From positions 620,001-684,000 of the forward strand of contig CAWUHX010000100.1 of the NCBI GenBank assembly GCA_963922205.1: DNA of 64,000 bases, in the 5' to 3' direction. Positions within the stretch are counted from its first letter, which is position 1. Every line of letters starts with the position of its first letter. Positions 4,025-32,280 of this stretch are shown piece by piece. The translations under genes and the position numbers were made by a program. Below the pieces are notes generated by a model, which saw nothing but the letters and a program-made list of their open reading frames with translations, was not told the origin of the DNA and ran no database searches. This DNA is from Romanomermis culicivorax. Its lineage: Eukaryota; Nematoda; Enoplea; Mermithida; Mermithidae.

Positions 4025-4545
4025 AGAGAAGGTAAGTACTAAAAGGGATCACCACTGTTATATATGTACTTATTTGGGAGACTCTCTATTGCTGATCCAT
4101 CAAAAATATTTGAGATTCAATTCAGAATTTAAATGATTTGGCAGGAGTTTTGAACCCAGAGGTTCAGACCTTAATACTAAGACTTACCTAGTGCTTGGCC
4201 GGGGCATGATCTCCCTTTCTTTCCACAAACGTGCAAAATTTTACTCAACAAATAAATATTCTAAATGGAGAAATTGCTGATTCCTCAATATGAAATAATC
4301 GGGCCACAATGGTAAAATTGTGCAGCGAGGAGTTTACCTGGCCAGGAAAAACACAATCCATAAAATTACAAAATGCTAATTCTGAATTACTGACCCTAAT
4401 TCCAGCACATGATGCAATGACTACACTAATTGCATCATCCAGTTTGAACATCGGTGAGATGCTTCAGACATGCTCATCTTTGGTTGTAAGGTGCAAGAAG
4501 TTGTAAAGTGACATTAAAACAGTTGTGGGAGACTGAAATGTCACT
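4025..4545. other. No recognised gene
   Basis: AT-rich spacer. Short open frames near 4245-4506 on both strands overlap each other and show no family signal. Confidence 0.5.
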
Positions 4546-4866
4546 ACAACACGCTCTATTGTCCCTGCACTCTATTGTCCTGCACTCTAATGTCCACACT
4601 CTAATGTCCCTGGGCTCTAATGTCCACACTCTAATGTCCCTGCGCTCTATTGTCCTGCACTCTAATGTCCCTGCGCTCTATTGTCCTGTGCTCTAATCTG
4701 CCTTCACTCTTTTGTCCTGTCCTCCAATGTCCCTGTGCTCTATTGTCCTGCACCCTATTGCCCTGCACTCTAAATTCTCTGCGCTCTAATGTCTGCACTC
4801 TAATGTTCCTGTGCTCTTATGTCGGTGCTCTAATGTCCACGCTCTATTGTCCCCCGCTCTAATGTC
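4546..4866 (+). repeat. Minisatellite, 13-16 bp CTCTAATGTCC/CTCTATTGTCC unit
   Basis: About twenty head-to-tail copies of a unit close to TGCGCTCTAATGTCC, alternating with TGCACTCTATTGTCC. Unit length varies slightly and the A/T at the centre alternates. The open frames across it (Leu/Ser/Cys-rich) are products of the repeat, not genes. The array ends where the inverted terminal segment of the 97-bp-repeat family starts (about 4876). Confidence 0.85.
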
Positions 4867-4875
4867 CGGTCATGC

Positions 4876-5690
4876 ATCAACCTATAATATACTTGGCCCC
4901 CAAATTTCATGTCCCCTCTCTAGAACAAAAATGGTAAGAGCTAGAACCTTCCGGTTTTTTCCATAGTTTTGGGCATAGGGGAAAACTATGGGGTGCCTTT
5001 TGTCATTTCGCCTCTATCTGCAGGTGGTGCTCTGTAGGGCCCCAAAAAACATGCAAAAAACGCACTTTTTAAGGTCCCCCAGTTCCACCATGCCCAGCAA
5101 TGGGTGTGCCATATCCAACTACCATACTTCGGCCTAAGCATCATGAGGGTGCAATCCAAATGTGATTTTTTATTTTTTTGAAATATGGCCTCAACTCAAT
5201 TAATGGTTGTCCTAAGTCCCGAGAACCATGAAATTTGGCAATTTTGTCTGGCTTCAAAAAAATAATTTTTTGCAGCATTTGTGCCCGAATTTTTTGCAGT
5301 TCCAATTGAACCAGTAGCCTTATGGGTTTCTTGAAGTGTAAAGGCTTTCGATCATGGGGAATTCAATGGAAGTGGTCACTTTACACAAAAAAAATCATCA
5401 TTAATGTGAATGAAGGTACTCCCATGACTTTTTAGAGGAAGAAGTTTTCGACCATTGGAATTTGATGGATGTGGTGATTTAATACAAAAAATTATCCCAA
5501 GTGTAAACCAGCATATTTTGGATGGGGTTTTTAACCACACTTAACTTTTTAACCCTACTTCCAAACTGTAATTCAGAATGGGATCGAAAGGGAAAGTAAA
5601 AAATATAATGCAGTACTTTTTGGCCTACCTGATTCGAAGGATGACTTGACATAAGTACGAAAGCTAGTATCAACCTATAACCACAAATCA
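4876..5690 (-). repeat. Inverted copy of the composite-repeat terminal segment
   Basis: This stretch is the reverse complement of the ends at about 8.85-9.61 kb and 15.2-16.03 kb. It shares the conserved AT-rich and G-rich tracts, for example CCTATAATATACTTGGCC at its outer edge, and it carries one or two degenerate 97-bp units near 5330-5540. It faces the LINE in the opposite direction to the copy at 8.5-9.6 kb. No coding capacity is seen. Confidence 0.75.
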
Positions 5691-14467: not shown

Positions 14468-16046
14468 TCACCTCTTTTTAGTGGGCCTCAACCATGCCCG
14501 AAAACTTTCATAGAAGCGCATTGAAGTTTTAAATTTGGTCATCTGCCCTTCAAAAAAGCAATAAAAAAACTTCAAGCAACGAATTCTCACCTCCGGCAAA
14601 AGTAAAGGATGTGTAAACCGCATATTACTTTAAAAACGTTGTAAAGATACTGAAAGGTGACCATATCTATTGAATTCCTCATGGTTTAGAATCCTTCAAC
14701 CAAAAAAATCGCAGAAATACATTTGTTTACATGTGTAAACTGACTCCATCCATTAAATTTCCCATGGTCAGAAACATCTTCCCTCGAAAATCGCAGAAAT
14801 ACATTTGTTTACGCTCAATATGAATTAGTGTGTAAAGTGATCACTTTCATTAAATTCCCAGTGGTCGAAAACCCCTCCCACATACAACTCACGAAAACAT
14901 ACTTATAATTTTTTTGTGTAAAGTGACACATCCATTGAATTCCCCGCAGTCGAAAACCCCTTCCATAAAAATCACGAAAAGACGCTTGTTTACACCCGCG
15001 ATAGTGTTTTTGTAAAATGATTGCATTCATCAAATTCTCCGTGATCGAAAACCCCGCCCACCAGGAAATCACGAAAATACGTTTGTTTACAACCGGGATA
15101 ACTTTTTGTGTAAAGTGATCGCATTTATCAAATTCCCTGTGGTCGAAAACCCCTTCCAGCAAAAAATCACGAAAATACGTTTGTTTACACACTGGATAAT
15201 TTTTGGTGTAAAGTGATCACATTCATTGAATTCCTCGTGGTCGAAAATCCCATCCACAAAAAAATTAGGGCAGTACGCTTGTTTACACCGTGGATGATTT
15301 ATTTGTGTAAAGTGAGGACGTCTATTGAATTCCCCGCAGTCGAAAACTCCACCACTGAAAAATCAGGGAAATACGCTTGTTTACACCCGGGATAATTTTT
15401 CGTGTAAAGTAAGGGCGTCTATTGAATTCCCCGCGGTCGAAAACTCCCTCCACTGAAAAATCACGGAAATACGCTTGTTTACACCCGGGATAATTTTTTG
15501 TGTAAAGTGACCGCATCCATCAAATTCCCAATGGTCGAAAACCCTTGCAGCCCAAAAATCTCAATAAGGCTACAGGTTTATTTGAAACTGCTAAAAAATT
15601 AGTAGTGCATTATGCTACAAAAAATTATTTTTTTGAACCCATAGTATTATATAACAAAATTGGGAAATTTGGCGTTTTCCGGGACTTTGGACAACCATAT
15701 AATTGAATTGAGGCCATATTTCAAAAAAAGAAAAATTCGCATTTGAGATTACACCCCCAAGATGCTTAGGCCGAAGTATGGAGGTTGGATATGGCACACC
15801 GATTGCTGGGCATGGTGGAACTGGGGGGCCTTAAAAAGTGCGTTTTTTACTTATTTTTGGGGCCCCACCGAGCACCACTTGCAGATAGAGGCGAAATGAC
15901 GAAAGGCACCCCATAGTTTGCCCCTATGCCCGATATTATGCAAAAAACCCGAAGGTTCTAGCTCTCACCGTTTTGGCTCTAAGGGGGGGGGGGACATGAA
16001 ATTTGGCGGCCAAGTATATTATAGGTTGACGCTGTCGCGCCACCTA
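14468..16046 (+). repeat. 97-bp tandem array plus conserved terminal segment, copy 2
   Basis: About 14700-15545 holds eight or nine units of about 97 bp like those at 8.5-9.1 kb. Then comes the conserved segment that ends GGTTGACGCTGTCGCGCC at about 16039. The longer array explains the greater length compared with copy 1. Open frames crossing it on both strands (about 60-125 codons) repeat every unit and are not genes. Confidence 0.8.
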
Positions 16047-16859: not shown

Positions 16860-17235
16860 CATAAGAAAAAACGTCTTTTGATTTGAGTGACCACTGGCCA
16901 CTCACCAGGTGTGGTCACTTGGATGATCACTAGCCACAAAACGGAAGTTATAGGCCAATTCTCCACCAAAGAAAAGGTTTGCCGAGTTGATTGACCAGTG
17001 GTCAGTCAGCTGGTCTGGTCACTCGGATGACCCCTAGGCACCAATCTTGAGTGAATATTAGATAACATCCAAATTGCCAGTTGATGGGCTAATTTTGCAT
17101 CAAAAAAAATGTTCGTTGATTTGAGTGACCATTGGTCACTCGGTTGACCACTGGTCATTCGCATGATCACTTGTCCCAAACTCGATTTAACACAGCACAC
17201 ATAGTATTTACTTTGTTCTGTCACATTTTACGCCA

Positions 17236-18694
17236 TGTCACGTGTATGACAGGTTTATCTTGGGAGAGCTGGAGAGGTTTGGGTATCTCATCAGGTAATA
17301 CCGTGTTTTAGACGTCACATTGATGGTGAACCATATCAGATTGATCCTATTACAGTGAGTAATAGGCTGTGACTCCTGATGGATACTGGCATTTTCCCCA
17401 GGCTTCCCAAGTTGGCGTTGGGGCCTAACCTGGCAAATGGTGGCTATAGAGAGGTCTATAGTTGGTTCTCTTGTGTTGTCCTTGGGGTCTTGCTGTAGGG
17501 TAACAGACAACGCTGCCAGGCTAGGTGCGACAATCCCCGAGTCCTACTCAGTGAGAGTGGGGACAGGGTCACCCGTGAAGTGACCTAAATTATGGGACCC
17601 GATTTTGAACCAGACAGCCCCCCTTTAGCCCGAACCTGAGAGGTGGGGGCCCTACTTATCTGTGGAAACCTCGGGAAACCGACTTAGGAAGGATTTCCCA
17701 ACGAATAACCCACAAATAACAATAATCCCCTGAGAAGACTCACCTAGTCCTGTTTCTCAAGCGATTACGACGCAACGGGCGGCAAGTCCCTGGATGCTTT
17801 CGGTCTTCTGGCACTGGGAGCGGGGGATGCGATCCTCAAACGTCCTAGGCGGCGAGCGGCGGCGAGCGGCGGTGAGCGGGAGGGAGCGGGAGCGAGCGGG
17901 AGGGAGCGGGAGCGAGCGGGAGGCGAAACTCCAACGTTAAATTCACGAACCGGGGCGGTCGGACACCTGGCACTGATGGGCAGCGGGGTACTGTAGGCGG
18001 TGAGCGGCGGACGCAGTAAGGAATGCAAGGGTATGCAAATTTATTTAAAATAATAGGCGGCGGACGCAGTCAAGTATATAAAAATATGCAAATTGAGCAG
18101 GGCGGCGGACGCGGGTGACAACCGGACGAAAGCTTGGTGAACCCAAGAATGAGCGAAAAACTAAAGAAACATGTCCTTTTAAGGACATGTTTGGCTACAG
18201 CTGCAGCTTGGGCGGAGTTTCTCGGTGCTCAAGCTAACTTCTGCAGCTAGACGCGATGCAGAAGATGCCTATGAGCACATAGACATTTTTTCATTCACAT
18301 GCGTTTAGCACTGAGGCCGGCTGCAGTGCCTATGCTAAGCATATGAACGTCTTTAGCTAAAACTTCTTAGCTAGTCGTTTTGCGTAACAAAAACGACGCT
18401 AATTTTTGATGATAAGAGGTGCGTGAGCGCACCAAAAATAGCCATGTGCTCGTGGAGCACGACTGGCGGAAGTTTTTAGCTAAAGGGCCTACTGTAGCCC
18501 GCGTTTGTAAAGAAATAAAAATACAACAAAACGAAACATAGAAATGCATGAAAAATATAAAAACGAACGTAAAATGCATGTGTAAAAATGAAATAAACAA
18601 AAGCATGTTCGAGTAATAAACGAAACATGAAAAATAACAAAATGTCGGCATGATCAGGATCACGTGACGTTGGAGAATTGAGCGGCACGTGACA
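17236..18694 (-). repeat. Candidate 3' LTR (1459 bp)
   Basis: The boundaries come from a perfect 9-bp inverted pair, TGTCACGTG at 17236-17244 and CACGTGACA at 18686-18694, with the TG...CA ends expected of LTRs. The stretch lies downstream of integrase on the coding strand. It contains a 10-bp GAGCGGGAGG-type array (17849-17933). The partner 5' LTR is not in the window, so neither identity between LTRs nor a target duplication can be tested. Confidence 0.55.
17849..17933 (+). repeat. 10-bp GC-rich tandem array inside the LTR
   Basis: Eight to nine copies of a decamer grading from GGCGAGCGGC to GAGCGGGAGG. On the coding strand of the retroelement it reads as CCGCTCGCTC-type repeats. GC-boxes of this kind in an LTR could act in transcription, but that is only a possibility. 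Confidence 0.8.
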
Positions 18695-19213
18695 CGGCGG
18701 TCCTTCGAAAAAGGGCGTCCTCGTCCTTGCAGTGGTCAGTAGTGAGGTTTTGTACGGCGTGTCCGTGGTCGTAGGTCATTCCAAGGTGTGACGGCGGAAG
18801 TGGTCGAATAGGTCCGTTGGGTTGTCGGCGGGTGGCGCCTTCTTTGATCGTAATTCGTTCGGCGGTATGGTGACCGGAGGTTGTTGATGTGTGGAGTTGC
18901 CGACATTGAATATCCTGTGCGACAGTCTAGAACACAGAAAAGAAAAATTTTCAGGGCAAGATGTAGGCTATCGCAGAGGATGCGCCCCAGTGAGGTACAG
19001 ACTGTCGGGCTATCGCAGAGGATGCACCCTGTGAGGTGTAGGCTATCGCGTGCGGATGCGCCTAAGGCGTGACGCTTAGGTTGCTGAACGCTCTCTTCTA
19101 TCCGCTAAGATCCAGCATGGACAAGAGTGGATACTTCGTGAGGGGCACGGCGGTCCTTCGAAAAAGGACGTCCTCGTCCGTAAGCGGGGACAATGAAGAG
19201 AGTGCATCTTGAG
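18695..19213 (-). repeat. 3' noncoding region of the retroelement with repeats
   Basis: Between the stop codon and the LTR. A segment of about 33 bp (core CGGCGGTCCTTCGAAAAAGG) occurs at about 18694 and again at about 19147. Three imperfect copies of a GGCTATCGCAGAGGATGCGC unit lie at 18966-19062. I see no clean polypurine tract directly at the LTR edge, a weakness of the boundary proposed here. Confidence 0.55.
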
Positions 19214-22200
19214 TTACGGGTCGGGAACCTCTGCATCAAGATGGGGGTCAATCAGATTCGGTGTAAAGTCCCGGCTTATTGAAGGATACAATAAGGGTGC
19301 CGAATCTGTTGCCTGTGAAGTGGGAGGTGTATCCTCTGCTTCACTCGGTTGTTCAGGGGACACGTAAAGTCGAAGCTGGTTGACATGTACAGTGTCTTCC
19401 TGATCCATCTCGAGACGAAGTGTGACATTGGGATATGCCACACTTGTGACAAGGTAGGGCCCATCGTAGATGGGCAGCAATTTAGGAGTGAGTCCACGTT
19501 TGCTGGAGGTGCGCAGTTTGAGCACCTGATCCCCTACTTTGTACGAGACATCATGTGCCTTCCGGTCGTACGACCGTGCATAGGCTTCCTGTGCTTTCTC
19601 AATCCGACTCTGGATCAAGGTTAACGCATTCGTGAAATGACGTTTGACCTCCATATCATATGAGGAAACATTAATGATATGGGCCGGAGGGTTGAATGAG
19701 AGCGCGGCATCAACAGGGAGCATGGGTGTGCGACCGTACATGAGTTCAAAGGGCGAGTACCCTGTTGACTCATTCATGCTGATATTGACGGCAAACACAG
19801 CGTATGGTAGGTGTTCATCCCAATCAGTATGTCCTTGATGAACATACATACGTAGCCGTGTGGCTAGCGTCTGATTAGCTCTTTCCACTTCGCCGTTGGT
19901 CATCGGGTGATAGGCGGTAGAGTGGATTTTCTTCGTAGCGCAGATCGCAGTGATTTCAGTCATCAGTTTTGATGTGAAATCAGTGCCACGATCTGACTGA
20001 AGAATCTGCGGTGCCCCGTGCCGGCAGACAATTTGCGTTACAAACAGCCGGGCTATGGTGTGCACAGTGATGTCCGGAGTAGCAAAAGCTTCGACCCATT
20101 TCGTAAAGTAGTCGATAAAGACTACGATGAAACGGTTGCCAGCTTCGCTAGTGGTCATTGGTCCCATGCAGTCGACACCTACCCGGTGAAACGGTCCCGT
20201 TATGGTGATAGGTTTCAGGGTCGCAGTGGTTTTCTGTCGAGCGGGCTTATTCCGTTGGCAAAGATCACACCGCTGACAGAAGGACTTGACATCCCGACTG
20301 AGGGAGGGCCAGTGGTATCTGCGAGCAATGAGCCGCGCAGTACGTTTAGCACCGAGGTGTCCAGCTAAGATGTCATCGTGATGAGCCCGGATAATGGTAG
20401 TAACCATGGATTTGGGTATGACGATCTTATTGGACTCGCCTGTCCATTTCTGAAGAACGTTATCCAACAGATGGTAGCCTCGCACATCATTCTGGTCGCC
20501 CAGGGGCTTAAGAGAGCGAATGATGTCGGCTAACTCCGGATCCTCCAGCTGAGCAGTGAAAAGGTCGGGGTGCTGCGCACCGACGGATATCTCGGCATAA
20601 GACTCTGATCGTACCGGGCGCTCCGCGCCAACAGTGATCGTTGCTGAATTACTTGAACGCGCCAGGTGCTGCACACCATCGGTCAAGGTCCTTGATCTCG
20701 CCAGGTGCTGCGCACCATCGGTGATCATCATAACGTGCCCCTCAGGTCTGTAGAGGAGAGTATCATCAATACTCTGACCGGTGAGGGAGTTAGGATCCGG
20801 CAGGCGTGATAATGCGTCAGCATTACCATTAGACTGACCTTTTCGCGGCCGAATTGTCAGTTTGAATTCGGCGAGCGCGAGTCCCCACCGAGCGATCCGA
20901 GCAGAGGGGTTAGGCTTCTCCAACACTGCTTTGACCGCGGTATGGTCAGTCTGAATGACCACCTCGTGCTGGAAGAGGTATGGTCGAAAGTGCTTGACGA
21001 AATGGACAACAGCGAGAGTCTCCAGTTCTGTAATGGAGTAGTTTTTCTCGGCCGCTGTTAACCCTCGACTGGCGTACGCGACAGGATGGTCGTATCCATG
21101 TTCGTCTAACTGGCTAAGAACCGCTCCTATCCCCGAAATACTTGCATCAGTTTGAAGGATAAAGGATTTCGAAAAGTCCGGATGGCGCAGGATAGGAGGG
21201 TTGGTCAGCAGGCGGCGGAGTTCATCGAACGCCTCCTGCTGAGGTTTTGACCACTGGAAAGTAGTTTCCTTCCGTAAGAGCTTGGTGAGTGGCTCGCTGA
21301 GCCGGGCACAACCAGGGATGAAACGCCTGTAGTAAGACACGAGGCCTAGGAAGGACTTGATGTCTTTGGCGTTTTGTGGAATGGGTAGGTTTTGGACGGC
21401 GGCCAGCTTGGCTTGGTCAGGTTCTAGGCCGCTCTGTGAGATGCGATAGCCTAGGTATTCTACCTCTGAGTGCGAGAATTTGCACTTGCTCAGTCTGAGC
21501 TTCATTCCACCCCGGCGAAGACGGGCGAACACATCTGCCAGGCGCTCAAGCATTTGGGTGTGAGAGTTCCCGAACACCAAAATGTCGTCGAGATAAGTCA
21601 GAACCGTGCGCCATTGGATTCCAGTAAGGAGGAGGTCCATAAGGCGTTGAAATGTCCCTGGCGCGTTGCATAAACCGAAAGGTAAATAGTTGAATTCGTA
21701 AAGTCCAATAGGCGTATTAAAAGCCGTCTTTTCCTTATCCGCCTCGGCAATCGGGATTGACCAATAAGCGTTAGCCTGGTCAAGGGTAGTGAAATACTTC
21801 ATACCCTTGAGTGTGTCGAGGATGTCATCTATCCGCGGGAGAGGGTAGACATCCTTTTTCGTGACCTCGTTAAGACCACGAAAGTCAACACACATACGGT
21901 GAGAACCGTTTTTCTTGCGCACCAGGACAGTATTAGTAGCCCACGGAGACGTGCTGGGCCGAATAATACCTTTCTCCTGGAGCGCCTTGACCTCTTGCAT
22001 GATGAGATCTTTCTCCTTAGGTGAGGACCGGTAAGGAAAACGGCGGACTGAGCGGGCATCGCCCGTGCTGATTTCGTGCTGGACGAGATCAGTGGAACCT
22101 GTGTCCTTTTCATCAAGAGCATAAAGGTCGGCGTATGCAACCAGCAGATCGAGTAAGGCTGCCCGGTCCCGAGGGGAGATGTCCGGTGAGATTACAGCAT

Positions 22201-25200
22201 TGGCCTCGACCCACTGACGATCGAGGACGGTGTCTGAGTCGACCGGTGATTCCCGTGAGGGCTCACTATGCATCTGCACATGACCGATGGTCGTGTGCGG
22301 GTAGAGAACCACGGAATGAGTACTCGGGTTGACTACCTGAAGTGGTATGTGACCGTTGGTCACGGTACTCACGCTTCCAGCAAAATATACGTGTCTTTGA
22401 GATCCGGTGAGGTGCTTCGGAAAGAAGGCCACCTCAGGCACGTTCGTATAGATTGGTGGGACAGGGACAGTGAATCGTGTCATGGAGCGAGGCTCTAGAA
22501 TCACCAAGTCCTTCAGGGGCAAAGCGCCGCGCTCAGAAGGTGGACTGTGGATGAGACCGTCACAGGGGATTCTACTTTCCTTGAACTGGAGGAAGGATTT
22601 CTCCCAGTTCAAGCTGACACAATTGAACCGGCCAAGGAAGTTGGTTCCAAGGACCAGTTCAGCTGAACAGTTCTCCTGTATTTGGACCTGAATCCGTTCA
22701 GAGACATCAGCCACTGTAACTGTGATGTAGGCTGCTCCTAGCAGTGGGATCGGGGACCCATTGGCTGCGATAGGGCGTGCCCTGGTTGGTGATAGTGACA
22801 AGTTGGGCAGCTGGGCCGCTAACTTGTGGTCCAGGAGTGAGAAGACAGCTCCTGTGTCGACCAGCGCCTTCGCTTCTACCCAGTTGTTGAGGAGAACTTT
22901 GATATGGGGCGTCCGGATATCATTTGGGTAAAAAGCCGTGACCACATGACCGGAATCAGGTGTGGTGGCACCACTAGCGTGTTTGGTCTTACCGGACCGC
23001 TTTGGAATCGGCAGTCCCGTACGACGTAGAAGACCTACTAGAGCGTATCCGACGGAGGGTTCCGGGTCATTCAGAAGGGTGGACTCATCCTGCACTGTTA
23101 GTACGAGGTCTGAGTGATCCTTCGGACTCTGAGTAGCGCCTAGTGATTCAACCTCGGTGTCCGATAGCGGAGGCGCGTTTGGCACGGGTGATGTCGGAGC
23201 ATCTGAATCACTTGGCTCACGGTATCGGCCCTTCTCTAGCGTAACTGGAGAGGTTCCAGGCGGAGGTCGAGGGCAACCTGACCCGTGCAAGGTCGACAGA
23301 TGACGACTTGCCCTTCTAGAAGAGGCCCGGGATCCCCTAGTTGACCCACGTGATGATGCAACTGAGGAGGCCCGTGAGTGTGGCCGAGAGATGGACGAAG
23401 CCCTGGACCGCGATCGTGATCCCGACCTGTGTGAGTTTCGCGAGAGAGCACGGGTGTTCTCCCACCAGGGGTCGATCTGGTCAATCTCCGGCGTGGTCAG
23501 CAGGAGGGGTAATTCTACCACGTCCAGCTGACAAACATTACGTTGGTAGTCAAACATAATGTTCTTGAACTGTTCTAAGAAGTCCAGTCCGAGTATGAGG
23601 TCGACAGGTGCCCAGAAGGGAGACGTAGTCTTGCACACATGGAGATGTACATCGATCCGTGTGTTCGGCTGGCGGTTTCCGGGCAACATGATTTCATATG
23701 GTCCCGAAAGGATGGTATGAACGGCTTTACCATTGATGCTCATCAATGGGTTAAAGTCGTGATGTTGCTGGAACGCCATGACCGCCTTCGGACTTTCTTT
23801 AGCCAAGGCCTTATGAAGACGTGGGCTAATGATAGTGCGTGGGCAACCCGTGTCAAGGAACGCAGGAGTTTCCTTGGTGTCCAGCAGCACGACGAAGCAC
23901 GGTGTGATTCGGTCAAGCTGGGAGGGCACATCGTTTTGCACGTAGTGAAAACCGATCCAGCGTTGGACTTTACGGTAAAGACCCAACGGGGAGAAACGGC
24001 TAACAAACCGGACCTGTTTGCTCCGTAGACGGTAGCTGAGATAATAAGATACACCAAGATAGGCAAGGTATCCAGCACCGATCAGCATGGTCAGGGTAAT
24101 TAGGATGTTAAAGATCAACTGGACCGGCCCGCTCAGGACAGCATGCAAGCCCTGGGCGAGGGTGTGTTGTTGACCCGTAATAACATGGTTTGCTGCCAAA
24201 CCGACACCTTCCAGAGAGGCCTTGATGTCGGTTCCTACCCCTGCAAAGGCCTGGTAGATGGCGTCTGGTTGCAGGGATAGACCAGCGGTAAAGTTTACCA
24301 GCCGGTTTAATACCGCTTCAATTTGCTCAGTCTTGTAAACGTACTGTTTAAAGAAGGCAAAGTTTGAAGGGGTCATCGCCAACTGGTCATGGAAGAGCGC
24401 CGGTGCCTCAAAGTGAGTGATGTTGAAACGCTGCTTCCAGAAGAGTTCCAGTGGGATGTGGCTCACATGGACCGCGCCAGACTCAGTAAACCAGCCCGAG
24501 CGATTTCGGAAAATCCCTGTAAAGTGGTGATGACACAGCACAATTGGGCTAGATTTAATGAGATCCGGACCACCGGGAGTGGCGAAGTAGATGGTGCCGC
24601 CAACCTGTACAGGTAAGTACTTGTAGCAAACGTTCCCCACCCGGTACGAGTGATAAACGTAGGTGGCGTTGACCTTCTGACACGGCCATATTGTCAGCGC
24701 ATCGCCTGTGAATTCCGCCGTCAGGTCATTCCTCTGGAGGAATGCCCGGGCACCCAGGGTAGGGTCGAAGCGAAGCAGCTGCCAAGTCAGATCAAGATAG
24801 CGTTGAGCGTGAGAGCAGAGCTCAAGCCACGTGAACCGGAAACCGTTAATTTCCGACTCCTTGATCTGCTGAGCCAGATAGTTCAGTTTGGCATTGACAG
24901 GATCGGGACGGCTGTCCGTTGCTACTCTGAACAAGCTTTGGGTCATATTGTATCTCCCGTGGATGCGAAGGAGAAGACCCTGATCCGTCCGGACTGTGGT
25001 GGAACGTAGTTTCTGGGCACAGTTGGAAGACACGGGAGTTTCCCGGGATCTTGAGGGCAACCTGTAGATCATCGATGATGACGTGGTTCCCTGACATGGA
25101 CGCAGTGAATTTCCCTTGGGGTGATAATGACACTGCGCCGTGAAATTTTGTGCAGGCCAGACAATGACCCCGTCTAGAGTAGTGCACTGGCCTGCAGTGG

Positions 25201-25702
25201 GACTGCATCCACCTACATCGCCTAAGGTGCTTAGGGCCGTAGTGCCGTCCCACGAAGCGACTTGTCCCTCCTCGATGAAGAGGTTAGTCACTGTCTTGCA
25301 GACGTCGCTGCAGCACCATTCGTACATCACTTCCAATGTTTGGTTTGTGCTATAAAAGCCAGGGCGAATGCCGACAAGTTTTTGTGAACCAAACATCTTA
25401 GTGCGATGTGCTAGCGTGCATGCCGCAGGCGCTAAGTGCTGAGTGGTAATGACGTCTGCAGTGATGCCCCTAGAGCCGAAGAAACCAGTGTTGGTGCAGA
25501 CTTTGCGGGAGCGCAATGTGCATTTCCACGCTGTGGCTGTAATCGGGTCTGAGCTAGGGACATACACCGTAACATTCATGCGCCGCGGGCTCCATGAAGA
25601 TTGCGGTGGTTTACACTCTACACGCTGGGGTAACTCAAGTGGATGTCCGCTTCTTGAGAGACCGCAAAATTGATACTGAGCCGCCGGTGCTGACAAACTC
25701 AC
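19214..25702 (-). CDS. Env-like / protease / protease / RT / RNase H / integrase polyprotein
   Basis: 2162 codons without a stop. Residues 1-560 form an Env-like ectodomain with many Cys and about eight N-glycosylation sequons, then a membrane segment (about 524-556) and a basic tail. Protease 1 spans about 597-735 (DTG at 617-619, LILGLDFL at 702-709). An Arg/Ser-rich stretch covers about 755-800. Protease 2 spans about 931-1025 (DTG at 949-951, LVLGTNFL at 1016-1023). RT covers about 1225-1415 (VDFRGLN, FTTLDQANAYWSIPI, LPFGLCNAP, YLDD at 1370-1373). RNase H covers about 1505-1630 (TDAS, TELETLAVV, TDHTAVK). Integrase covers about 1770-2110 (HHCC finger; catalytic D1844, D1904, E1940; GPY at 2081-2083). 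An Env domain in front of pol in the same frame is abnormal. A signal-peptide-like leader lies just upstream in another frame. I took the first ATG; the true start is uncertain. Confidence 0.9.
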   Translation of the reverse strand: MSLSAPAAQYQFCGLSRSGHPLELPQRVECKPPQSSWSPRRMNVTVYVPSSDPITATAWKCTLRSRKVCTNTGFFGSRGITADVITTQHLAPAACTLAHRTKMFGSQKLVGIRPGFYSTNQTLEVMYEWCCSDVCKTVTNLFIEEGQVASWDGTTALSTLGDVGGCSPTAGQCTTLDGVIVWPAQNFTAQCHYHPKGNSLRPCQGTTSSSMIYRLPSRSRETPVSSNCAQKLRSTTVRTDQGLLLRIHGRYNMTQSLFRVATDSRPDPVNAKLNYLAQQIKESEINGFRFTWLELCSHAQRYLDLTWQLLRFDPTLGARAFLQRNDLTAEFTGDALTIWPCQKVNATYVYHSYRVGNVCYKYLPVQVGGTIYFATPGGPDLIKSSPIVLCHHHFTGIFRNRSGWFTESGAVHVSHIPLELFWKQRFNITHFEAPALFHDQLAMTPSNFAFFKQYVYKTEQIEAVLNRLVNFTAGLSLQPDAIYQAFAGVGTDIKASLEGVGLAANHVITGQQHTLAQGLHAVLSGPVQLIFNILITLTMLIGAGYLAYLGVSYYLSYRLRSKQVRFVSRFSPLGLYRKVQRWIGFHYVQNDVPSQLDRITPCFVVLLDTKETPAFLDTGCPRTIISPRLHKALAKESPKAVMAFQQHHDFNPLMSINGKAVHTILSGPYEIMLPGNRQPNTRIDVHLHVCKTTSPFWAPVDLILGLDFLEQFKNIMFDYQRNVCQLDVVELPLLLTTPEIDQIDPWWENTRALSRNSHRSGSRSRSRASSISRPHSRASSVASSRGSTRGSRASSRRASRHLSTLHGSGCPRPPPGTSPVTLEKGRYREPSDSDAPTSPVPNAPPLSDTEVESLGATQSPKDHSDLVLTVQDESTLLNDPEPSVGYALVGLLRRTGLPIPKRSGKTKHASGATTPDSGHVVTAFYPNDIRTPHIKVLLNNWVEAKALVDTGAVFSLLDHKLAAQLPNLSLSPTRARPIAANGSPIPLLGAAYITVTVADVSERIQVQIQENCSAELVLGTNFLGRFNCVSLNWEKSFLQFKESRIPCDGLIHSPPSERGALPLKDLVILEPRSMTRFTVPVPPIYTNVPEVAFFPKHLTGSQRHVYFAGSVSTVTNGHIPLQVVNPSTHSVVLYPHTTIGHVQMHSEPSRESPVDSDTVLDRQWVEANAVISPDISPRDRAALLDLLVAYADLYALDEKDTGSTDLVQHEISTGDARSVRRFPYRSSPKEKDLIMQEVKALQEKGIIRPSTSPWATNTVLVRKKNGSHRMCVDFRGLNEVTKKDVYPLPRIDDILDTLKGMKYFTTLDQANAYWSIPIAEADKEKTAFNTPIGLYEFNYLPFGLCNAPGTFQRLMDLLLTGIQWRTVLTYLDDILVFGNSHTQMLERLADVFARLRRGGMKLRLSKCKFSHSEVEYLGYRISQSGLEPDQAKLAAVQNLPIPQNAKDIKSFLGLVSYYRRFIPGCARLSEPLTKLLRKETTFQWSKPQQEAFDELRRLLTNPPILRHPDFSKSFILQTDASISGIGAVLSQLDEHGYDHPVAYASRGLTAAEKNYSITELETLAVVHFVKHFRPYLFQHEVVIQTDHTAVKAVLEKPNPSARIARWGLALAEFKLTIRPRKGQSNGNADALSRLPDPNSLTGQSIDDTLLYRPEGHVMMITDGAQHLARSRTLTDGVQHLARSSNSATITVGAERPVRSESYAEISVGAQHPDLFTAQLEDPELADIIRSLKPLGDQNDVRGYHLLDNVLQKWTGESNKIVIPKSMVTTIIRAHHDDILAGHLGAKRTARLIARRYHWPSLSRDVKSFCQRCDLCQRNKPARQKTTATLKPITITGPFHRVGVDCMGPMTTSEAGNRFIVVFIDYFTKWVEAFATPDITVHTIARLFVTQIVCRHGAPQILQSDRGTDFTSKLMTEITAICATKKIHSTAYHPMTNGEVERANQTLATRLRMYVHQGHTDWDEHLPYAVFAVNISMNESTGYSPFELMYGRTPMLPVDAALSFNPPAHIINVSSYDMEVKRHFTNALTLIQSRIEKAQEAYARSYDRKAHDVSYKVGDQVLKLRTSSKRGLTPKLLPIYDGPYLVTSVAYPNVTLRLEMDQEDTVHVNQLRLYVSPEQPSEAEDTPPTSQATDSAPLLYPSISRDFTPNLIDPHLDAEVPDP

Positions 25703-25812: not shown

Positions 25813-27090
25813 TCAGATTTCTTCTTCGTCGCTGTCGGACGAGATTGGTTCCTGGCCGGGGAAATCGAGGACCAATCCACCGCACGGGTGGATTTCCCGG
25901 AGGATACCGATTTTTGGCGACCGTGGGGCGACTGCCGTTGGGAACGGGGATTCCTCAACGATGCTGACATCTTCGTTAACCGGACATAAGGTCTCGTCGA
26001 CGGCCATGTGTTCGACGACGGGCGACTTGGTCGCGGCGGTCGGAGATGTCGTTTGGGCTGGTGCCGGCGATTTGACCTGGGCTGTTGCCGACGATGTATG
26101 TTGGGCTGTTGCCGGCGGTGTAGGATCATTTGCGGGTTCCTTGGCCGGGGGCGAGGGAAGCAGTAATGTCCATTTTCGTTGGCGATGTCGCGACAACAGG
26201 TGGTGCTGCTGCCGGTGATGTAGCGGCGGCAGCAGGCAGGAGGATCCGACTGGCCTGTTCGACTGCTCGGCGGACGGCATCGACTGAAGGCGAGGACGGC
26301 TCCCCGTCCAATAAGAACTTCTCGACGGGCGAGATGGTGATAGTCCCATTGGCAATGAACTCGAGTGCCCGTCGGGCGACGTCGGGTCGTAAGAGGCGCA
26401 TTGAGACAGGTGCTGCAAGCACGACGTCGGCGGCCGTGAGCGCTTCGACATTCGATGGCTCGTTGAGGAGAGTCCACGGCAAATGCGGGTATTTCTTGGC
26501 CAGGTCGACTGACCAGATGGCCAACATCGCGTCTTGGACGGGCGATGGCGCTGTGAACAAGAAATCGATAGAGTCGTGGACTGAGATAGATTCCTGGTTC
26601 CTACTCTAGGATCACCTGAAGAAGAAGGTAGTATACCTGACAAATTCATGGGCTCGACCTGGTCGAGGACTTCCGTAGCCGAATCCGTGGGGATCGAAGG
26701 CGGTGGTCCTGGAGGGACGATGCGGGCCGGTGGCGCCGAAGACGTCGTATTGGCGGCTGGAGCTGGCTCGGCAGTCTTAATTTTAGGAATGTGATACGAT
26801 GCGAGGATGTTAGCGTGGCCAACAAACTGCGGTGTCGTCGAGGGGTCCAGGGTGACCGGCATCGCATACTTTGGTGGTGGTGGTGGCAGCGGTATGTCCG
26901 ATACGTTTATCGGTACGGGTACCTGGGCTGCTTGGACCACTGAAAATCCAATACTGATTACGCAGACAGGATAACATTGTTGTGAAGAATCTGTCAGGTG
27001 TTCAGCAAGTGCCTCATCATCCAGGTCGAGAGGATCTGGATGAGGAGGGCCATCGGTAGCCCCAACGGCGTTGTTGCGGGCGTATGGGCT
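25813..27090 (-). pseudogene. Gag continuation, Pro/Ala-rich, frames broken
   Basis: After the zinc-knuckle region the coding frame shifts by one near 27030-27090. It continues through HPDPLDLDDEALAEHL into a proline-rich stretch (DIPLPPPPPKYAMPV near 26890). A second shift near 26570 leads to a helical segment ([35 protein letters not shown]). A third near 26150 returns to the earlier frame and ends in an acidic tail (SSDSDEEEI) at 25813. Two of the shifts compensate each other, which fits small indels or sequencing errors. The role within Gag is unknown; I recognise no Pfam-like domain. Confidence 0.6.
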
Positions 27091-27775
27091 GCCGATATTG
27101 GTTTCCTATCCCGTTGGGAGGGTGATAACCATTTCTTTGATGATACACATTTGTCCCCTGGGAGGAATAACCAGTATCTTGGTAGACATTCTCACCCGTG
27201 TTTGCCGGATTGCGCTGCGGACAGGCAGTTGATCGGTGCACTCGCACTTGACGACAATGAGGGCATGGCCTATCACATCGGTCCGTGGGGTGGGCACGTG
27301 TACGGCAAAAATAACAGCGACCACCGTTAGCGGCGTTGTTACCGGGAGCGGCACCGGTGGGACGCTGGGCCCGGCAGTCGGCGTCGCTATGTGTACACAG
27401 TCCGTGGAAGGAGCACGTTTGAAGGTGTGCTCCCGACGAGCGTCGCCCGGCGGACTGATTTGGTGTCGACGGCTGTGGAGGCGGCGTCTGTTGGATTGGC
27501 GTGGGTGCACGTTGCTGGGCCGTGAGCTTTGCTATGTGGGCCGTGAGCCTGGCCATTTCCTGTTTCAAGCGGCGAACCTCATCGGCGGAGGATGACGACG
27601 TTGGAGCGTTGCTCTGACGACCGTTTGCGCTTCTGTTAGGCGTTTCGGGATTATATTCGGCGTGTTTAGGTTCTGAAGAGAAAACGGCGTTAGATGGAGC
27701 AGTGTACCGGATCTCGTCCCGAAAGATTTGGGATTCTGCGTAACAGGCTGCCTTGAGTGTCTCTTCAAGAGTCGT
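27017..27775 (-). CDS. Gag C-terminal fragment with zinc knuckles
   Basis: Open frame entering from the N gap. After a coiled-coil-like stretch (EVRRLKQEMARLTAHIAKL near 27560) and a Pro/Gln-rich linker come Cys/His clusters: CSFHGLCTHSDADC near 27400, then CYFCRTRAHPTDRC and CPHCRQVRVHRSTACP near 27290-27190. These are CCHC-like nucleocapsid knuckles that bind the genomic RNA in related elements. The C-terminus is Gln/Tyr/Arg-rich. The N-terminal capsid part is lost in the gap. Confidence 0.8.
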   Translation of the reverse strand, partial: TTLEETLKAACYAESQIFRDEIRYTAPSNAVFSSEPKHAEYNPETPNRSANGRQSNAPTSSSSADEVRRLKQEMARLTAHIAKLTAQQRAPTPIQQTPPPQPSTPNQSAGRRSSGAHLQTCSFHGLCTHSDADCRAQRPTGAAPGNNAANGGRCYFCRTRAHPTDRCDRPCPHCRQVRVHRSTACPQRNPANTGENVYQDTGYSSQGTNVYHQRNGYHPPNGIGNQYRQPIRPQQRRWGYRWPSSSRSSRPG

Positions 27776-27875
27776 NNNNNNNNNNNNNNNNNNNNNNNNN
27801 NNNNNNNNNNNNNNNNNNNNNNNNNNNNNNNNNNNNNNNNNNNNNNNNNNNNNNNNNNNNNNNNNNNNNNNNNNN
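27776..27875. other. Assembly gap, exactly 100 N
   Basis: A run of 100 undetermined bases, the usual placeholder for a gap of unknown size. The retroelement enters on the left, while unrelated AT-rich MITE sequence begins on the right. Confidence 0.98.
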
Positions 27876-31303: not shown

Positions 31304-31399
31304 AAAAAAACAAAAACATCCGTCATCATTTTGATTGGTGGAAAAATTTCATACCTTCAATTTAATTGGTCGAAAAGTTGTAGTCTACTCACTCCTTCC

Positions 31400-31520
31400 T
31401 AACCGTGAGTCCAAGCCTAAGTTCAGGCCTTAGCCTAAGCCTGAACCTAAGACTAAACCTAATCCTAAGCCTAAGCCTATGCGTAAACCTAAGCCTAAGC
31501 CTGAGTCTAAGCCCAAGCCA
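31400..31520. repeat. Degenerate interstitial telomere-like repeats (GCCTAA)n
   Basis: About fifteen hexamers of GCCTAA type with variants, for example AACCTAAGCCTAAGCCTGAG. The complement TTAGGC is the usual nematode telomere repeat. A shorter TTAGGCTTAGGCTTAGGG occurs in the other orientation at about 32213 and again at about 58206. Long open frames here encode Leu/Arg repeats and are artefacts. Confidence 0.75.
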
Positions 31521-32280
31521 GAAAATTTGCCAGAAATAACTGTAAAAATCGGTAAATTTTTTCGACCAATCAAAGTGATGACAGATCTCGCTTCGCAATG
31601 CTTTCTTTCGCTTCATGGTTTTTTTCCTCAATCGACTATTGGGGAATTTTTTTTTTGAATTGAGGAAAATTTTTTTGTACTTAGGCACCAATTTGAAGAA
31701 AAATTTTTTGATGGTTTTCTTTTCGGAGATGCATTTTACGCGTTATAAAATTAAAAATTGTTGAAATTTTCTGGCTCTCCGCGCCGGATTTTAATTATTT
31801 AATAATTTTTTTAATTCCAATGCGCGGTTAGGAAATTTCATACTAGCTAATGATTATAGCTTTTAATTATCAATATATTATGGATAAATGTTTGATCCTG
31901 TGTCGTTTTTTGAGAATTTGACGAAAAGCAAGATTTTTCTCGACTATTTTGCCAAAGTGTTTTTTGCGATCTTTAAAAAGACTTTGACATTTGTGTGATT
32001 AGAACATTTTGAGTCCAAGTGGGAATTCTTGCTGGTTGAAGAATAAAAATTCTTGATTGCTTTTCTAGTTTTTGTTTTGAATTGGACTAAATTTTATAAG
32101 TCGATTCGCGGCCTTCAGCCTAATTATTTTACATATGTGAGTTGTTTGTTAATTTTGAGTACGGATTTCTGTGACTAGTGAGTAGAAATTTATTTTTCTT
32201 TTAAAATTTTCCTTAGGCTTAGGCTTAGGGTACAACAGCTGCGCCTGTCTTAAACGAATATAGTGTTTATACTTTCTGGT

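What the first reader, a model, noticed from the sequence alone, without database searches (positions are those of the whole stretch)
19214..25702. Retrotransposon with an Env-like glycoprotein placed before pol in the same open frame
In vertebrate and insect env-bearing LTR elements env lies after pol and is made from a spliced RNA. Here a Cys-rich, multiply N-glycosylated ectodomain with a C-terminal membrane segment (residues about 1-560) is followed without a stop by protease, RT, RNase H and integrase. Translation would give a membrane-anchored polymerase precursor, with Pol on the cytoplasmic side. I know of no described family with this order. The ectodomain's general pattern brings class III-type fusion glycoproteins of invertebrate negative-strand RNA viruses to mind, but that link is inference.
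Basis: partly seen in the sequence, partly recalled or inferred. Interest (0 to 1): 0.9.

Follow-up and report, generated by a model that had tools for sequence, protein, structure and literature searches.

The report
Retroelement with fused entry protein and polymerase
A virus-like jumping gene in this genome encodes its membrane-fusion (entry) protein in the middle of one long reading frame, directly ahead of its copying enzymes, instead of as a separate gene at the end, and related elements share this order.

Summary
Confirmed and extended. The minus-strand ORF 19214-25702 encodes a class III fusion glycoprotein, a membrane anchor, two retropepsin-like domains, RT, RNase H and integrase without a stop. 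It is part of a Ty3/gypsy-type LTR element of about 16 kb. In 22 of 22 scored copies this stretch has no stop; in 20 of 22 the frame runs 3092-3100 codons, and in the copy read it begins with Gag. A second family in this genome has Gag, a hydrophobic leader, Env and protease in one frame. Eight further database proteins have Env ahead of RT and integrase. Class III identity rests on PF24664, profile matches only to herpesvirus gB in the PDB and a modelled domain matching gB. Env and RT divergence covary; every domain has dN/dS below 0.4. Inferred mechanism: leader and anchor put Env in the ER lumen and leave Gag and Pol in the cytosol, so Pol is tethered to Env until protease frees it. An overprinted frame between Gag and Env is selected as coding. 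A key paper could not be read.

The parts
17219..18694 (-). 3' LTR of the window copy
   Evidence: about 95% match to the LTR of copy C362; LTR ends TG...CA in other copies
18695..19213 (-). untranslated stretch between stop codon and 3' LTR
19214..25702 (-). Env-PR-RT-RNase H-integrase open frame, 2162 codons
24014..25702 (-). Env: class III fusion glycoprotein, aa 1-563
25127..25552 (-). part of Env whose model matches the gB fusion domain, aa 51-192
24467..24898 (-). PF24664 Monjiviricetes_fusion match, aa 269-412
   Evidence: E 1.6e-12, 46.6 bits, cut-off 27
24050..24148 (-). hydrophobic membrane anchor, aa 519-551
23483..23917 (-). extra retropepsin-like domain (PR1), about aa 596-740
   Evidence: dN/dS 0.08 for aa 590-740; only weak match to DDI1
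22958..23482 (-). Ser/Arg-rich linker
22628..22897 (-). canonical protease (PR2), aa 936-1025
   Evidence: PF13975 E 1.6e-9
21440..21922 (-). reverse transcriptase, aa 1261-1421
   Evidence: PF00078 E 7.5e-35; Ty3 nearest in PDB
20864..21253 (-). RNase H, aa 1484-1613
   Evidence: PF17919, PF17917
19904..20419 (-). integrase, zinc-binding and core matches, aa 1762-1933
   Evidence: PF17921, PF00665
25701..25772 (-). hydrophobic leader in front of Env (approximate; out of frame with Env in the window copy, in frame in copy C24)
25813..26581 (-). overprinted frame B between Gag and Env (approximate; disturbed in the window copy)
26582..27775 (-). C-terminal part of Gag with a zinc knuckle (approximate; disturbed in the window copy)
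27776..27875 (.). 100-N assembly gap; no element sequence found beyond it

Best explanation
It is a Ty3/gypsy-type LTR retroelement that captured a class III fusion glycoprotein of the chuvirus/mononegavirus/gB kind and carries it in frame between Gag and Pol. Shown: order Gag - hydrophobic leader - Env ectodomain - TM anchor - protease(s) - RT - RNase H - integrase in one open frame, kept between families. Inferred: the internal leader acts as a signal peptide and the C-terminal helix as a stop-transfer anchor, so that Env is lumenal while Gag and Pol stay cytosolic on one two-pass precursor (or on an Env-Pol precursor where Gag is separate, as database protein P0010 suggests). Pol would enter budding particles through its tether to Env rather than through a Gag-Pol fusion, and retropepsin, brought together by Env and Gag assembly, would release it. 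A separate frame-B product is made from the overprinted stretch between Gag and Env, probably from a spliced RNA.
For: Open frame of 3092-3100 codons in 20 of 22 scored copies; Gag with a zinc knuckle at its start in the copy read, and nine more 5' pieces align to that one over about 5 kb at 96.6-98.2%. Second family: Gag-leader-Env in one 999-codon stretch, part of a 2573-codon frame. Eight database proteins with PF24664 ahead of RT and integrase; hydrophobic leader upstream of the fusion domain in 8 of 8 and zinc knuckles upstream in 6 of 8; P0010 starts with a leader directly ahead of Env. Class III identity. dN/dS: Env ectodomain 0.34, TM/tail 0.07, PR1 0.08, PR2 0.04, RT 0.03. Env and RT distances over nine proteins correlate, r 0.74, permutation p 0.0008, and 14 Cys columns are kept in 9 of 9. 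RT nearest to Ty3 in the PDB. LTR pairs 97.2-99.9% identical in five copies.
Against: No RNA, protein or particle data. In the window family the stretch between Gag and Env is selected in another frame (dN/dS frame B 0.22, frame A 2.37), so a Gag-Env-Pol product would hold an unselected spacer, and Env-Pol may come from a spliced RNA instead. P0009 and P0010 show no zinc knuckle upstream of Env. The AlphaFold model is poor overall (mean pLDDT 46.6, pTM 0.32) and TM-scores against viral models are at most 0.28 among the 50 listed. A fixed Env:Pol ratio would be unusual for a virus (recalled).
Confidence: 0.68

Rival explanations
1. Env-Pol is made from a spliced subgenomic RNA (Gag AUG or a leader exon joined to an acceptor just before the leader peptide). 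Gag is then separate and only Env-Pol is a fusion.
For: In the window family the stretch in front of the leader is selected in another frame that ends in a stop. An acceptor-like CAG lies just after that stop, and no frame-A ATG lies between it and the end of the piece in Env. P0010 begins at the Env leader.
Against: In the second family and in 6 of 8 database relatives Gag zinc knuckles and Env share one frame. Across the overprinted stretch frame A has 0 stops in 10 of 10 copies while frame C has 3-7, and only 2.7% of 2000 codon shuffles leave frame A open.
Confidence: 0.3
2. The fusion is an accident of one family or of the assembly: a glycoprotein insertion that happens to be in frame, without function.
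For: The window copy itself is damaged upstream and lies at an assembly gap; 5 of 10 fetched loci of other families have frames that end in or just after Env.
Against: The same order in 22 of 22 copies, in other families of this genome and in eight database proteins from several sources, with purifying selection and covarying Env and RT.
Confidence: 0.02

Closest known systems
Anakin, BEL/Pao elements of mosquitoes with a chuvirus glycoprotein (PMC7642597, passages seen)
   Same: LTR element with a captured chuvirus-type glycoprotein.
   Different: Described as BEL/Pao; here RT is nearest to Ty3. The passages state a position downstream of the polyprotein for Roo, Tas and Cer-7; for Anakin itself I saw no statement of position. 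Here Env lies between Gag and protease in the same frame.
Envelope-carrying gypsy elements (errantiviruses) of insects, some with type III fusion glycoproteins (PMC13172572, passages seen)
   Same: Ty3/gypsy-type elements with an envelope, in some cases of class III.
   Different: [quoted passage not shown] here the order is Gag, Env, Pol in one frame.
TelKA elements of bdelloid rotifers (PMC5408684, passages seen)
   Same: LTR elements with an envelope from negative-strand RNA viruses.
   Different: Class I (paramyxovirus F-like) glycoprotein as ORF3; the passages place such ORFs downstream of pol.
Herpesvirus gB and chuvirus/mononegavirus class III glycoproteins
   Same: Profile and fold of the Env part.
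   Different: In those viruses the glycoprotein is a gene product of its own (recalled); here it is fused to retroelement Gag and Pol.

Membership tests
Ty3/gypsy (Metaviridae) | Pol order protease-RT-RNase H-integrase | tested here: met
   Pfam order and in relatives
Ty3/gypsy (Metaviridae) | RT nearest to Ty3-type RT | tested here: met
   Among PDB sequences Ty3 is best, E 3.2e-91, next other entry 5.3e-59; no tree with other LTR groups was made
Ty3/gypsy (Metaviridae) | LTRs with TG...CA ends and 4-6 bp target duplication | tested here: met
   LTR pairs in six copies examined, one of them partial; TG...CA; identical 4-bp flanks seen in 2 of 6
Ty3/gypsy (Metaviridae) | GPF/Y module at the end of integrase | tested here: inconclusive
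   GPY seen by eye in the translation; no model was run; the hallmark is named in PMC12440569
Errantivirus | env as third ORF behind pol | tested here: not met
   Env lies ahead of protease
Anakin-like BEL/Pao elements | BEL-type RT | not tested
   No BEL reference was compared; RT nearest to Ty3 in the PDB
Class III fusion glycoprotein | sequence profile of the class | tested here: met
   PF24664 over its cut-off; 23 of 23 PDB sequences up to E 1 are gB, best E 6.2e-4 (the one named ORF8 is listed as KSHV gB)
Class III fusion glycoprotein | fold | tested here: met
   [not shown]
Class III fusion glycoprotein | membrane fusion activity | not testable with these tools
   needs protein work

The most novel reading that the evidence does not exclude
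An old and diverse lineage of retrovirus-like elements packages its polymerase by covalent linkage to the entry glycoprotein (Gag-Env-Pol or Env-Pol polyprotein spanning the membrane) instead of by a Gag-Pol fusion, and has used the junction of Gag and Env as a slot for added modules (RRM, dUTPase, helicase, or an overprinted accessory gene).
Probability: 0.45. Interest if true: 0.88.

Novelty: new variant of a known kind. Interest (0 to 1): 0.8.

Why it matters
In the passages that I saw, where the order is stated, env lies behind pol. This lineage has Env ahead of Pol in the same frame and has kept it so while Env diverged to 32-56% and RT to 36-71% identity between nine proteins. If it is translated as it reads, it is a different answer to how a retroelement gets its polymerase into enveloped particles and how it balances Env against Pol, and it makes both questions testable in a natural system.

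Tried and rejected
[quoted passage not shown] PMC12440569, introduction and part 1 of 3 of the results read). Rejected: frame B as a homologue of the stretch before Env in relatives; its scores do not stand clear of shuffles (P0002 46 with 92 of 300 as high; P0003 58 with 18 of 300; P0004 35 with 41 of 300). No canonical slippery heptamer between 4091 and 4200 of the C24 piece. The first LTR comparison found nothing because the leader is about 3.7 kb long. The Env piece alone gave no convincing PDB match (best E 0.11, bacterial adhesins). The Env-only profile search reached no stand-alone glycoprotein, only one 309-aa fragment, P0005 (only the 7999 candidates sharing most words were scored). 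PR1 against PR2 does not beat all shuffles (50, largest shuffle 52), against the proteases of P0002-P0004 it does. No tRNA was found in the window, and the primer-binding site was not assigned. The host was not identified: the nematode SL1 leader gave 0 exact matches, the rRNA and telomere searches did not complete. One search was a useless query. Dropped from counts: P0005 (fragment) and P0011 (PF24664 as its only Pfam match, near its C-terminus).
Full report
Observation. [quoted passage not shown] In the own genome (359 Mb, 595 contigs) 22 copies were scored out of 13374 first-look candidates; 22 of 22 cover the 2162 aa at 97-100% identity with no stop. In 20 of 22 the open frame is 3092-3100 codons; the exceptions are the window copy (2163) and one other (2439).

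Whole element. Six copies were examined for LTRs. Five show a pair of about 1.45 kb, 97.2-99.9% identical; in the sixth 690 bp align and the 3' copy runs into N. By the coordinates the copy on C24 spans about 16.2 kb. Order: 5' LTR; a leader that I compute at about 3.7 kb for C24, without a frame of 150 codons or more in 5 of 6 copies, the sixth having one of 151; one long frame; about 0.5 kb; 3' LTR. Ends are TG...CA. Identical 4-bp flanks were seen by eye in 2 of 6 copies. No purine-rich tract is evident just before the 3' LTR. The window copy has its 3' LTR at 17219-18694; its Gag stops at the N gap 27776-27875, and of the pieces of C362 compared none matches beyond the gap. Three one-base length differences from C24 disturb the upstream frame here.

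Order conserved. PF24664 gives 68 scored matches in the own genome (of 2320 first-look candidates), all over the cut-off, and rings in 0 of 14 control genomes. Of ten fetched loci five (L044, L045, L048, L049, L050) run from Env into protease in one frame; in L041, L042, L043, L046 and L047 the frame ends in or just after Env. Env identity to the window family is 35-45%; L043, L044, L046, L049 and L050 are one family among themselves (85-99%), as are L042 and L047 (94%). For L049 the upstream piece shows Gag related to the window Gag (28%, E 5e-46), zinc knuckles, a hydrophobic leader and Env in one frame. Database searches gave ten distinct proteins. Eight (P0002-P0004, P0006-P0010) have PF24664 ahead of RT and integrase matches in one ORF. 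Two were set aside: P0005, a fragment, and P0011, with PF24664 near its C-terminus as its only Pfam match. Pfam finds a protease between Env and RT at E 0.01 or better in 6 of 8; P0006 and P0010 have a DTG motif there. Zinc knuckles lie upstream of Env in 6 of 8 (not in P0009 and P0010), a hydrophobic stretch in 8 of 8. P0010 starts with that leader, so there Env-Pol is an ORF of its own. Env and RT distances over nine proteins correlate (r 0.74, p 0.0008) and 14 Cys columns are kept in 9 of 9, which fits one capture followed by long common descent. The two trees agree on the pairs P0002-P0003 and P0001-P0008 and their union, but not on all deeper branches.

Selection. Pooled over eight copies (the best-scoring ones, so not a random sample), dN/dS is 0.34 in the ectodomain, 0.07 in the anchor and tail, 0.08 in PR1, 0.11 in the linker, 0.04 in PR2, 0.03 in RT, 0.22 in RNase H (few changes) and 0.06 in integrase.

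Overprinted frame. In ten copies, between Gag and Env, 42 of 69 variable sites fall on third positions of another frame. From 4138 to 4902 of the C24 piece dN/dS is 0.22 in frame B, 2.37 in A and 1.72 in C; frame A has no stop in 10 of 10 copies, frame C has 3-7. Synonymous codon shuffles leave A open in 2.7% of 2000. So B looks like a real protein of 240-260 aa, while A appears to be kept open without being conserved, as a translated spacer would be. The copies are related, so this is moderate evidence. Variable sites place the change of frame between about 4136 and 4152, next to an acceptor-like CAG; the first ATG in frames A or B after it is that of B at 4192, kept in 10 of 10. A spliced RNA is my preferred reading; no canonical slippery heptamer was found nearby. 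No homologue of B was found in P0002-P0004.

Two proteases. After the anchor the window family has a retropepsin-like domain (DTG and ILG motifs, recalled as hallmarks) and a Ser/Arg-rich linker before the canonical protease. The domain beats all 300 shuffles against the proteases of P0002-P0004, not against PR2, and has no counterpart at that place in P0002-P0004 or in the families of this genome aligned. P0008, the nearest relative (RT 70%, Env 46%), has several protease-like stretches too.

Mechanism. Leader and anchor imply a two-pass precursor: Gag inside, Env outside, Pol inside (standard signal-peptide and stop-transfer rules, recalled). That would link all three at a budding membrane and carry Pol into particles through Env; release would need protease. 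This is inference; no expression data exist here.

Literature. Ten searches showed, in listings and in the passages that I opened, no description of Env between Gag and Pol; 'gag-env-pol polyprotein' gave 0 papers. PMC10084718 (passages) reports no clear evidence of capture of Jingchuvirales glycoproteins by Gypsy or Copia elements. [quoted passage not shown] PMC10309623 (passages) on Cer1, PMC12992720 and PMC12859917 (passages) gave nothing on this order. The most relevant paper, Chary and Hayashi 2025 (eLife 108449), is not held, so a prior description there cannot be excluded.

Noticed in passing
window about 25813-26581, minus strand: Overprinted frame B between Gag and Env, selected as coding (dN/dS 0.22) where the long frame is not; 255-263 codons in the six copies listed.
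   Followed up: partly
window 22958-23917, minus strand: Extra retropepsin-like domain plus Ser/Arg-rich linker between Env and the canonical protease; nearest relative P0008 also has several protease-like stretches.
   Followed up: partly
database proteins P0002, P0003, P0006, P0009: Different modules ahead of Env: RRM (P0002, P0003), dUTPase (P0006), superfamily 1 helicase (P0009).
   Followed up: no
G000:C180:404-17640: Three PF24664 matches spaced 8365 bases apart, each with one TGA inside, as in a tandem array.
   Followed up: no
G000:C336:294899-321622: Two copies of the element in the same orientation about 20.2 kb apart.
   Followed up: no
loci L009-L034, upstream pieces: A leader of about 3.7 kb between 5' LTR and the first Met of the long frame, without long frames.
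   Followed up: no
window 14651-15581: Tandem array of about 98 bp units, related to sequence at about 7.8-9.6 kb of the window.
   Followed up: no
window 31398-31535: Degenerate CCTAAG repeat resembling the nematode telomere unit (recalled); host not identified.
   Followed up: partly
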